Below are positions 15,173-21,969 of a stretch of 21,969 nt of DNA, piece after piece (within the stretch, counting starts at the first letter, position 1; each line of letters starts with the position of its first letter). The stretch spans positions 64,001 to 85,969 of the IMG/VR virus record IMGVR_UViG_3300008267_000017; one strand, given 5' to 3'. Both the position numbers and the translations under genes were made by a program. The DNA is from a virus. The notes under the pieces are model-generated. The model searched no databases, was not told the origin of the DNA, and worked only from the letters and a program-made list of their open reading frames with translations.

Positions 15173-16140
15173 GATTCTTTCCAATCAATTCCTAGATTGT
15201 TCAAGAGCTTCTCTGTGCTGAACGCATCATCTTCTGAGCGTTTCATATGAGCACAAGCTGCATACATGTCCATAATTTCTATCAAACTCTTAGACTGTTC
15301 AATTCCTTGCCAATCTGTATATACAATAGGTTCTTTAGGATACCAAGCTTTGTATTGCTTGTAAACAGCTTCTACAGCTTCTTTATCTGTTTTGCAGTCT
15401 TTCAGTAGATTGTACATTGACACGACACCAAACTTCTTTCCAGCTATTTCACACGGCTTGAATGCATCAATCGAGTCGCCCAAAATCCACTGAGCATAAT
15501 AAAAAACTCTACCATATCCATCGAAGTCTTTGTTATCTTTAACCAGCTTAATCTCTCCAAAACCTCTTACAAGAAACGGCTCAGATTGTTTAGTCCAATT
15601 ATACATATAGCCAGCAACACCATTTTGGTCTCCGTCAATTGTGCAAGCAATTGTCTTAATCCCTTGAGCTAATCCCTCTGCACATCTCTGAGCCAACTTA
15701 TCATCAACCTCTCGTCCATTAACAATTTCAGCTTTCTTTTTATGCTCTAGATAGTCTCTACACTCTTTCAATTGTATAGGCTTGGTACTGCTTCGACCAC
15801 TTTTATACTTTGTTGGAAGAGGGAGCTTATCACGAAAGTTATCAACACCACTCAAGTATACCTCAACTTCATCTGCTTTGCAAGACTTCTTTAAAGCTTC
15901 AATAGTAGTGTTTATAGCGTGAAATGCATGAGAAATATCTTCTGGTGTTTGTACATCTACAATATCAAACTCTTCAATACTAAAAGAATCTTTAATTTGC
16001 TCTTTCAAGCTTGTTCTGTGAGGGCAGATAATCTCTTGTCCTGTTGTTTTATGTGTTGCCTTGATACTACGAGTTTCGTTTGCAGCAGCGCATCTGAAAG
16101 CCACGATATCGCCATCAATTACTGCTATTGTTTTAGTCAT
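15169..16140 (-). CDS. 5'-3' exonuclease, FEN/PIN-like (phage replication exonuclease)
   Basis: 323 residues from ATG 16140 (TTGGAGAAAAG upstream). Acidic metal-binding residues of the FEN/T7-gp6-like fold are seen in order: D9 and D11 (VIDGDIVAF), D100 (YLSGVDNFRD), D146-D147 (GREVDDKLAQ), D169 and D171 (CTIDGDQNG) and G221-D222...D225 (QWILGDSIDAF), the last being the helix-hairpin-helix region. In related phages this enzyme removes RNA primers and degrades host DNA or creates 3' overhangs for recombination. It lies between an AP2/HNH-like gene (eight-base overlap) and a small Trp-rich gene. Length is normal for the family. Confidence 0.9.
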   Translation of the reverse strand: MTKTIAVIDGDIVAFRCAAANETRSIKATHKTTGQEIICPHRTSLKEQIKDSFSIEEFDIVDVQTPEDISHAFHAINTTIEALKKSCKADEVEVYLSGVDNFRDKLPLPTKYKSGRSSTKPIQLKECRDYLEHKKKAEIVNGREVDDKLAQRCAEGLAQGIKTIACTIDGDQNGVAGYMYNWTKQSEPFLVRGFGEIKLVKDNKDFDGYGRVFYYAQWILGDSIDAFKPCEIAGKKFGVVSMYNLLKDCKTDKEAVEAVYKQYKAWYPKEPIVYTDWQGIEQSKSLIEIMDMYAACAHMKRSEDDAFSTEKLLNNLGIDWKES

Positions 16141-16750
16141 CTTTTCTCCAATCACAAATGTGTTCCCAATTTCTCATGTGCTCAATCACCCGCGAATCTA
16201 CTTGATACTCAGAAGTCAGAAGTTTTTCATACCATACTTTTGCGTATTTCTCTTTCTCCAATTTGTAGATTTTTCTAGCTTCTTCAATTTTACTGACATC
16301 AAAGAATCCCAACCTCTTAACTTCTCCTAGCATTTCAACACGAACTTCTAATTTATTTAAATTCTTTTGTAAATACATGCCTTGAGGATATTTACCTCTG
16401 CGTCCTTTTGAACTTTCCAAGAATCTGTTTAATTCTGAAGGAATTAGTACACACTTTTCTTTTGAATATTCCTTCATACCGTCTTTACATATGTCAGCAT
16501 CTAGTTCATAACCTAACCCATAACCAGTTTGAGTTACATGCCAATCTGTAAACTCCTGAAAATCTTTAAAAGAGTTTATACTGCCTCTGTAGTTAGGTAT
16601 TGTTAGTTGAGTATTCCCGTTCTCATTGCACCTTTCTTTTAGATTATTCCAAAGGACACCACTAATAGTCCATGTGTATTTATCTCCAACATATGCTCTT
16701 TGTACCCACCTCCCTCTGTGATCTTTAAAATCGGGTTGTGTTCTCCTCAC
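16133..16750 (-). CDS. Phage AP2/HNH-like DNA-binding protein (probable free-standing homing endonuclease relative)
   Basis: 205 residues. The start is GTG 16750 with a strong TTGGAGGTGAT site and GTGA overlap with the upstream stop. Features: ISGVLWNNLKERC (29-41), WHVTQTGYGLGYELDADICK (70-89), then YSKEKCVLIPSELNRFL (95-111), the ordered blocks of a phage family with a 'LD.DI...YS...C..P..LN' nuclease-like core, and a C-terminal AP2-like module (GKYPQGMYLQKNLNKLEVRV, then LGFFDVSKIEEARKIYK) known from homing endonucleases and integrases. A classic H-N-H triad is not obvious, so nuclease activity is uncertain. It sits in front of the exonuclease, whose ribosome site lies in its last codons. 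Confidence 0.7.
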   Translation of the reverse strand: MRRTQPDFKDHRGRWVQRAYVGDKYTWTISGVLWNNLKERCNENGNTQLTIPNYRGSINSFKDFQEFTDWHVTQTGYGLGYELDADICKDGMKEYSKEKCVLIPSELNRFLESSKGRRGKYPQGMYLQKNLNKLEVRVEMLGEVKRLGFFDVSKIEEARKIYKLEKEKYAKVWYEKLLTSEYQVDSRVIEHMRNWEHICDWRKDD

Positions 16751-21018: not shown

Positions 21019-21591
21019 TTAATAAGTGATATTGTAGGGTGTTTTGTCGGGTGTGTCAAGTATTTTGTCAATCTCATCTGTAATATCTCTGCGGCTGCGT
21101 TTATTCACAATACTACTGATTGTTGTCCGAGGTTTTCCCATACTAACAGCTACAACATTAACACCCTCTCCAAGTTTAACTCTGGTATATGCCTCTTTTA
21201 CTTCATCAATAGTAAGGACTTTGACAGCGCCAACTTCATATCGTTTCTGCATTCTACCTGCAGCATGTGCGTGGTCAATATTACTTTTTCTAGAAATCCA
21301 CTCAAGGTTATCGACATGATTATTACTCTTATCACAGTCCTTGTGATTCACTTGAGGGAGATTATCTGGATTATCTAGAAAAAACTCTGCGACAAGCCTG
21401 TGAGCGTATTTCCTTACTGGAGACCATTTTCCATCTTTCTTTATCATTGTTACTTGATAAGTTAAGTAGCCAGCTCCATTATCTGATAACAAGCACTCCC
21501 TGCCATCATCGCACTTCAAACGACCAAAGCTGCTGATCTTCTTACCTACATACCTGCCATCGTGATATACATCTTTCCAAATTTCTTCCAT
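21019..21591 (-). CDS. Free-standing HNH homing endonuclease, NUMOD4-HNH (I-HmuI-like)
   Basis: 190 residues in the I-HmuI-type order. N-terminal NUMOD4-like block EIWKDVYHDGRYVGKKISSF plus GRLK (3-26); HNH nuclease core AHRLVAEFF (63-71), VNHKDCDKSNNHVDNLEW (81-98, with H83, N90/N91, N95) and SNIDHAHAAG (103-112); C-terminal helix-turn-helix (TIDEVKEAYTRVKLGEGVNV, then GKPRTTISSIVNK). CGATAGGAGTAATA precedes the ATG. It sits directly after DNA polymerase exon 2, which is preceded by a group I intron, and has its own promoter. Likely role: homing nuclease cutting a polymerase gene or a neighbouring site in intron-free or HNH-free phages; the link with the intron is inference. Confidence 0.9.
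   Translation of the reverse strand: MEEIWKDVYHDGRYVGKKISSFGRLKCDDGRECLLSDNGAGYLTYQVTMIKKDGKWSPVRKYAHRLVAEFFLDNPDNLPQVNHKDCDKSNNHVDNLEWISRKSNIDHAHAAGRMQKRYEVGAVKVLTIDEVKEAYTRVKLGEGVNVVAVSMGKPRTTISSIVNKRSRRDITDEIDKILDTPDKTPYNITY
21031..21059 (-). promoter_or_regulatory. Sigma70-type promoter in the 3' end of the HNH gene
   Basis: TTGACA (21059-21054), 17 bases, TACAAT (21036-21031): perfect -35 and one mismatch in the -10. It lies in the last 13 codons of the HNH gene and points at the 20999 gene and the DUF5664 gene. Confidence 0.75.
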
Positions 21592-21617: not shown

Positions 21618-21646
21618 AGTATATCACCCAGACTAAGATTTGTCAA
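21618..21646 (-). promoter_or_regulatory. Sigma70-type promoter of the HNH endonuclease gene
   Basis: TTGACA (21646-21641), 17 bases, TATACT (21623-21618), with TG one base before the -10. It begins four bases after the DNA polymerase stop and ends 27 bases before the HNH ATG, so the HNH gene can be expressed separately from polymerase. Confidence 0.82.
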
Positions 21647-21650
21647 TAGA

Positions 21651-21803
21651 TTAGTGAATATCCGAGTACTTTAATCCAAAGTTGATATCACAAGCCAAAT
21701 CTCTATTAAGTTTAAGTTGTTTATTAACTTCCTCTAACCCATCTGATATGAGTTGCTTGAAATCTTCCTCTAACTCTACTTCCTGCTCATTAATTAATTC
21801 ATC
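21651..21803 (-). CDS. DNA polymerase (family A), C-terminal exon 2
   Basis: Reading - strand from 21803: DELINEQEVELEEDFKQLIS, then DGLEEVNKQLKLNRDLACDI and NFGLKYSDIH, stop TAA (21653-21651); 50 residues with no ATG start. The opening D-E-L is the end of motif C (V-H-D-E) of family A polymerases, the following acidic helix and the C-L-x-C-x-hydrophobic then G-x-x-Y-S-D-I-H ending fit the C-terminus of phage Pol I-like enzymes (T7 gp5 ends ...NWAICH). Exon 1, ending in ...H (CAT or CAC), should lie right of the window before the intron. Replicative polymerase of the phage; position next to exonuclease/SSB genes supports this. Exon length is a multiple of three from the first intron-free base. 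Confidence 0.82.
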   Translation of the reverse strand, partial: DELINEQEVELEEDFKQLISDGLEEVNKQLKLNRDLACDINFGLKYSDIH

Positions 21804-21969
21804 CGTTCATTCAAGTAAGCTCGTTAAACTTACTCCGCTTTCGCTGCTGCACATTCCTATGCAGTCTAGACTATCTCACATCCTTTTAAGGATTCTCCCA
21901 TTTCGAGTCACTTGACCCTACGCTTTTCAGCTAGTCGTTACACGTTCCTATTTCTAGGCTTCGCTCGGT
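21804..21969 (-). ncRNA. Group I intron, 3' half of a td-like (IA) ribozyme core, interrupting DNA polymerase
   Basis: The - strand shows the conserved 3' parts of a group I intron in order. P6 hairpin CCTA-GAAA-TAGG (21947-21958); P7 5' strand GACTA (21936-21932); P7.1/P7.2 with AGGGTCAAGTGACTCGAAA, which is identical to the phage T4 td intron as I remember it; P8 ATCCT/AGGAT (21880-21893); P7 3' strand TAGTC (within 21869-21874); P9 CTGCAT/GTGCAG (21847-21864); a GC-GAAA-GC loop (21837-21844); P9.2 AGTAAG/CTTACT (21814-21834); and a terminal G (21804, omega-G) before exon 2. P1-P5 and the 5' splice site lie beyond the window. No ORF is seen in this part. The intron should splice itself out of the polymerase mRNA. 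Confidence 0.92.

What the first reader, a model, noticed from the sequence alone, without database searches (positions are those of the whole stretch)
21651..21969. td-like group I intron splits the DNA polymerase gene exactly in the HDE catalytic motif
Seen: on the - strand an ordered group I core (P6, P7, P7.1/7.2, P8, P9, P9.2 and a terminal G) is followed directly by an open frame that starts D-E-L and ends 50 residues later as the C-terminus of a family A polymerase. Known: group I introns in phage genes are often inserted in codons for catalytic residues, and polymerase introns occur in SPO1-like and T7-like phages; the P7.2 stretch matches the T4 td intron. Inference: exon 1 ends in ...VH, probably CAT so that U forms the P1 U-G pair. 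A simple ORF search misses both the exon and the intron, so the polymerase would be annotated as truncated.
Basis: partly seen in the sequence, partly recalled or inferred. Interest (0 to 1): 0.8.

Follow-up and report, generated by a model that had tools for sequence, protein, structure and literature searches.

The report
Self-splicing intron splits phage DNA polymerase
A bacteriophage DNA polymerase gene is interrupted, exactly between two active-site residues (His and Asp), by a small self-splicing group I intron of a well-known type; it is real and neatly confirmed, but the same insertion site is already known in other phages.

Summary
The finding is right. The window ends at the end of an 85,969-base phage contig whose last 31 bases equal its first 31, so the missing half lies at the contig start. 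Joining the ends gives, in order: family A polymerase exon 1 ending ...KLLGQFH (CAT); a 240-nt group I intron with no open frame; and exon 2 (window 21803-21651), starting D-E-L and ending 50 residues later. An independent contig (L007) carries the whole arrangement unbroken; its intron scores 58.7 bits against Rfam RF00028 (gathering score 50). Of 11 differences between the two introns, six fall in drawn helices and all keep pairing, including two compensatory pairs. Another relative (L012) has a different intron at the same spot; 18 relatives have an uninterrupted HD(E/D). GenBank Vibrio phages (qdvp001, 424E50-1, K470) carry ORF-less introns at the same His|Asp-Glu junction, and the literature puts the phiI/W31 introns at this site ("881", E. 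coli numbering). This is a new member of a known kind. Two additions: an HNH endonuclease gene directly follows exon 2, suggesting but not proving mobilisation in trans, and a second ORF-less intron interrupts the terminase gene of the same phage.

The parts
21804..21969 (-). 3' 166 nt of a 240-nt group I intron (intron positions 75-240): P4 3' strand, P6/P6a, P7, P7.1, P7.2, P3 3' strand, P8, P9, P9.1, P9.2, terminal G. The 5' 74 nt lie at the start of the contig (L002 32-105, - strand).
21939..21969 (.). last 31 bases of the contig, identical to its first 31 (L002 1-31), so the contig closes in a circle inside the intron
   Evidence: continuity supported by the unbroken relative L007
21651..21803 (-). 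polymerase exon 2: DELINEQEVELEEDFKQLISDGLEEVNKQLKLNRDLACDINFGLKYSDIH and stop; carries the catalytic Asp-Glu of motif C
21618..21646 (-). sigma-70-like promoter match TTGACA-17-TATACT (11 of 12, TG before the second hexamer) between exon 2 and the HNH gene
   Evidence: consensus match only
21019..21591 (-). free-standing HNH endonuclease gene (190 aa, PF13392 HNH_3; nearest solved protein 1u3e, recognised from own knowledge as I-HmuI), candidate mobiliser of the intron

Best explanation
A 240-nt ORF-less group I intron (subgroup IA2 layout, with P7.1 and P7.2) sits in phase 0 between the codons for His and the catalytic Asp of motif C of a phage family A DNA polymerase. The exon end CCAU pairs with the intron's internal guide GUGG; guanosine attack, then exon ligation, restores QFH-DEL. 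If it is not spliced, the UAA at the start of the intron ends translation right after His, leaving a polymerase without the Asp-Glu pair, so the phage should depend on splicing. Shown: anatomy, intact frame after splicing, helix-preserving substitutions, intron-free relatives, relatives with introns at the same site. Inferred: that it splices, and how it moves (if it still does, probably by an endonuclease acting in trans, of which the HNH gene directly downstream is the candidate).
For: The contig ends overlap by 31 nt and the joined frame gives ...KLLGQFH|DELINEQEV.... L007 holds the same arrangement in one contig, 88% identical over 2.9 kb, and hits RF00028 at 58.7 bits. Of 11 intron differences from L007, the six in helices all keep pairing, including C51-G78 to A-U in P4 and A213-U227 to G-C in P9.2. 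L012 has an intron at the same codon junction, 80.9 bits. 18 relatives read straight through His-Asp. Vibrio phages qdvp001, 424E50-1 and K470 have 253-254-nt introns between ...LSYH and DE.... Across the six introns, 26 of 45 consensus pairs show double-sided changes. Exon 2 is conserved: 13 synonymous, 1 non-synonymous. The HDEL segment aligns with the HDE of solved Pol I.
Against: The window's own intron is put together across contig ends, so its continuity rests on the 31-nt overlap and on the relative L007. No RNA data exist here. In this contig a 14-bp tandem repeat puts the exonuclease part and the polymerase part in different frames, so this copy of the gene, or its assembly, may carry a defect unrelated to the intron.
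Confidence: 0.96

Rival explanations
1. On mobility, collaborative homing: the free-standing HNH enzyme cuts intron-free polymerase alleles at the insertion site, and repair copies both the intron and the endonuclease gene; the intron protects its own genome from the enzyme.
For: The intron has no ORF, and an HNH gene with a promoter-like site directly follows exon 2. L007 has the same layout. L012, with its own intron at that site, has an HNH gene directly upstream of the polymerase. The best solved-structure match is 1u3e, recognised from own knowledge as I-HmuI of the SPO1 polymerase intron. Collaborative homing is described for S-PM2 psbA (PMC6083498) and noted for T3/T7-like phages and ICP1 terL (PMC10448857).
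Against: HNH genes also lie directly downstream of intron-free polymerases: L008, L009, L011, L013, L023, L024 and GenBank phages AM24, D22, VH-8 and vB_PsaM_M1. Adjacency is therefore not specific to intron carriers. A first tblastn impression that it was did not survive the HMM search. No significant similarity to the T3 HNH protein.
Confidence: 0.4
2. On mobility, resident intron: it is no longer mobile, having lost any endonuclease ORF; the HNH gene is an independent occupant of a nuclease hotspot beside the polymerase gene.
For: The slot after the polymerase gene holds different nuclease types in different relatives: HNH_3 in several, Endonuclease_7 in L020 and (by near-identical sequence) L021, a weak AP2 match in L022, none seen in L010, L014, L016.
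Against: Introns at the same site in distant phages and the intron-free majority of relatives suggest gain and loss rather than simple inheritance.
Confidence: 0.5
3. Artefact: the polymerase is simply truncated and the group I likeness is chance or a misassembly at the contig end.
For: The window fragment alone scores only 17.9 bits.
Against: Unbroken independent copy in L007 over the gathering score, compensatory changes, restored frame, introns at the same site elsewhere.
Confidence: 0.01

Closest known systems
Group IA2 introns of T7-like phages phiI and W31 (DNA polymerase gene, site 881 in E. coli numbering; PMC3428280 citing Bonocora and Shub 2004)
   Same: Host gene family; insertion site His881/Asp882 by the published numbering; IA2 subgroup
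   Different: Those introns carry an HNH gene inside (PMC3428280 lists I-TslI of W31 as intron-encoded); here the intron has no ORF and an HNH gene lies outside, after exon 2
ORF-less introns in the polymerase genes of Vibrio phages qdvp001, 424E50-1, K470 (GenBank records)
   Same: Same His|Asp-Glu junction, small (253-254 nt), similar core
   Different: Different polymerase lineage; intron sequence about 72% alike to that of L012 over the part that aligns
DNA polymerase introns of SPO1, SP82, Bastille and Pf-WMP3
   Same: Group IA2 introns in family A phage polymerase genes
   Different: Inserted at site 674, in the fingers, and carrying HNH genes (PMC3428280)
T3 HNH gene next to an intron-free polymerase; S-PM2 F-CphI next to psbA
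   Same: Free-standing endonuclease gene adjacent to a gene that can hold the intron (PMC6083498)
   Different: T3 polymerase has no intron (single CDS); F-CphI is of another nuclease family; the HNH protein here has no significant match to the T3 protein

Membership tests
Group I intron (RF00028) | Covariance-model score over the gathering score for the whole intron | tested here: met
   58.7 bits (cut-off 50) for the intact copy in L007, which differs from the joined intron at 11 of 240 positions. The window fragment alone is below the cut-off. The joined sequence itself could not be scanned as a source.
Group I intron (RF00028) | P3-P8 core with P7 pairing and G at the 3' end | tested here: met
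   P3, P4, P5, P6a, P7, P8 and P9 all pair fully in the window copy and in L007; last base G
Group I intron (RF00028) | P1 with exon U paired to G of the internal guide | tested here: met
   Exon CCAU with intron GUGG; GTGG is invariant in six introns at this site
Group I intron (RF00028) | Self-splicing | not testable with these tools
   Needs RNA
Subgroup IA2 (td, phiI, SPO1 type) | P7.1 and P7.2 between the P7 5' strand and the P3 3' strand | tested here: met
   P7.1 GCU/AGC and P7.2 GUC/GAC present, the layout that PMC3428280 uses to assign IA2; not aligned to td itself
Family A DNA polymerase | Pfam DNA_pol_A match and motif C HDE after splicing | tested here: met
   PF00476 over the cut-off for exon 1 and for L007; HDE aligned with solved Pol I
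Collaborative homing pair | Free-standing endonuclease that cleaves the intron-free insertion site | not testable with these tools
   Only adjacency shown, and adjacency also occurs without the intron
Mobile intron with internal homing endonuclease | Endonuclease ORF inside the intron | tested here: not met
   240-nt intron without an endonuclease ORF

The most novel reading that the evidence does not exclude
One phage genome carries two ORF-less group I introns in two essential genes (polymerase active site, and terminase just before Walker B), each moved in trans by a neighbouring free-standing endonuclease gene, so that intron and endonuclease behave as separable two-part mobile elements across a phage lineage.
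Probability: 0.25. Interest if true: 0.5.

Novelty: new member of a known kind. Interest (0 to 1): 0.3.

Why it matters
It corrects what would be annotated as a truncated polymerase, and it adds a clean natural series: the same His|Asp junction intron-free in many relatives and occupied by different ORF-less introns in others, with nucleases of several kinds in the slot beside the gene. That series makes the collaborative-homing idea testable with ordinary cleavage assays. The intron type, the gene and the site are already known.

Tried and rejected
1. Rfam gathering scan of the window alone: no hit, because the intron is cut by the contig end. 2. The idea that an adjacent HNH gene marks only intron carriers, suggested by tblastn, was rejected after the HNH_3 profile search and ORF listing showed HNH genes after intron-free polymerases. 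3. Homology of the HNH protein to the T3 HNH protein: no significant match. 4. Erwinia phage phiEa1H (hit H33) holds an intron in its polymerase gene but at another place, upstream of its HDE; Vibrio phage S4-7 has a split polymerase gene, but no intron at this junction was found by the simple search. 5. RNAalifold cannot draw the P3/P7 pseudoknot and pairs the P7 3' strand with the guide region; that helix was disregarded. A hand-drawn pair count failed on a length error and was not repeated.

Full report
What the window is. The window is bases 64001-85969 of an 85,969-base virus record, so its right edge is the end of the contig.

Finding the missing half. A search of the record with the DNA_pol_A profile found a match at its other end, bases 106-807 on the - strand. 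The open frame there ends ...KLAKQRGLEFKLLGQFH, last codon CAT, followed at once by TAATGTTGGTGGCTTC. The first 31 bases of the contig are identical to its last 31, so the contig closes on itself inside the intron. Joined, the intron is 240 nt, has no endonuclease ORF, and its removal fuses the frame to ...LLGQFH-DELINEQEVELEEDFKQL....

Is the join real? L007, an independent contig, carries exon 1, intron, exon 2 and the next gene unbroken, 88% identical over 2.9 kb. There the intron scores 58.7 bits against RF00028 (gathering score 50, E 2.3e-14). The window fragment alone gives 17.9 bits.

Is it a functional-looking intron? P2, P3, P4, P5, P6a, P7, P7.1, P7.2, P8, P9, P9.1 and P9.2 all form in the window copy. 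Of the 11 differences from L007, six fall in these helices and every one keeps pairing: C51-G78 becomes A-U in P4, A213-U227 becomes G-C in P9.2, and two single changes swap one standard pair for another. P1 is exon CCAU with intron GUGG, the splice-site U facing G. An alignment of six introns at this site gives a consensus with double-sided changes in 26 of 45 pairs, though one helix drawn there is not part of the group I fold. Exon 2 shows 13 synonymous and 1 non-synonymous codon differences from L007, so it is evidently still read as protein.

The site. HDEL aligns with the HDE of solved family A polymerases. In E. coli numbering this is His881-Asp882 (own knowledge); PMC3428280 states that the phiI and W31 introns are 'at the site 881'. 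Of 20 related loci examined, 18 read straight through the junction (HDE or HDD), one is the close relative L007, and one (L012) holds a different intron there (80.9 bits); a twenty-first, L027, does not reach the site. In GenBank, Vibrio phages qdvp001, 424E50-1 and K470 have 253-254-nt introns between ...LSYH and DE.... The intron type, the host gene and the insertion site are thus all known.

Mechanism. Without splicing, the UAA that opens the intron stops translation after His, before the catalytic Asp; the phage therefore should need splicing for replication. How the intron moves is open. It encodes no endonuclease. Directly after exon 2, behind a promoter-like match, lies a 190-aa HNH_3 protein whose only solved relative in the search is 1u3e, recognised from own knowledge as I-HmuI. 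L012 has an HNH gene on the other side of its polymerase. That fits collaborative homing as described in PMC6083498 and PMC10448857. But HNH genes also follow intron-free polymerases in six relatives and in phages AM24, D22, VH-8 and vB_PsaM_M1, and T3 has an annotated HNH gene after its polymerase. The slot also holds other nuclease types. Adjacency alone therefore proves nothing about who moves the intron.

A second intron. The same record has another group I intron (83.3 bits) at bases 40115-40395. It interrupts the terminase large subunit; splicing would give ...GSWQGSQLTR|ILIDEAADKW..., just before Walker B (the terminase reading of the exons rests on the Walker A and DEAAD motifs seen in the sequence, not on a profile search). 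It too has no nuclease gene of its own. A 324-aa frame lies directly upstream, but Pfam gave no nuclease domain for it.

Verdict. Observation confirmed, interpretation supported, novelty low: a new member of a known kind with a tidy comparative series.

Noticed in passing
L002 1395-1910 and 103-1389, - strand (contig start): A 14-bp tandem repeat (GGTAGCTATAAACA GGTAGCTATAAACG) puts the exonuclease part and the polymerase part of the gene in different frames; the relative L007 has one copy and a single frame. Real frame break or assembly error cannot be told here.
   Followed up: partly
G000:C1:40115-40395 (L001 1511-1791): Second ORF-less group I intron, in what reads as the terminase large subunit gene, just before Walker B.
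   Followed up: partly
L031 (G003:C1:57998-58236) and L028 (G002:C1:63017-63234): Group I introns in related phages that appear to interrupt terminase genes at other places (one in the Walker A region, one near the gene start).
   Followed up: partly
window 21939-21969 and L002 1-31: Contig ends overlap by exactly 31 bases, so the record is probably a complete circular map.
   Followed up: yes
L008, L009, L011, L013, L020-L024, downstream of the polymerase gene: The intergenic slot after the polymerase gene is a nuclease hotspot: HNH_3, Endonuclease_7 or a weak AP2-like protein in different relatives.
   Followed up: partly
window 16133-16750 (-) and L002 3499-4065 (-): Two further proteins, one with a weak AP2 match and one without a Pfam match but similar in look to the AP2-like protein of L022; possibly more free-standing homing endonucleases.
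   Followed up: no
GenBank KT932418 (L032), OX241437 (L035), OZ196312 (L036): Deposited Vibrio phage polymerase annotations stop at or before the intron and leave exon 2 as hypothetical protein(s) or unannotated.
   Followed up: partly
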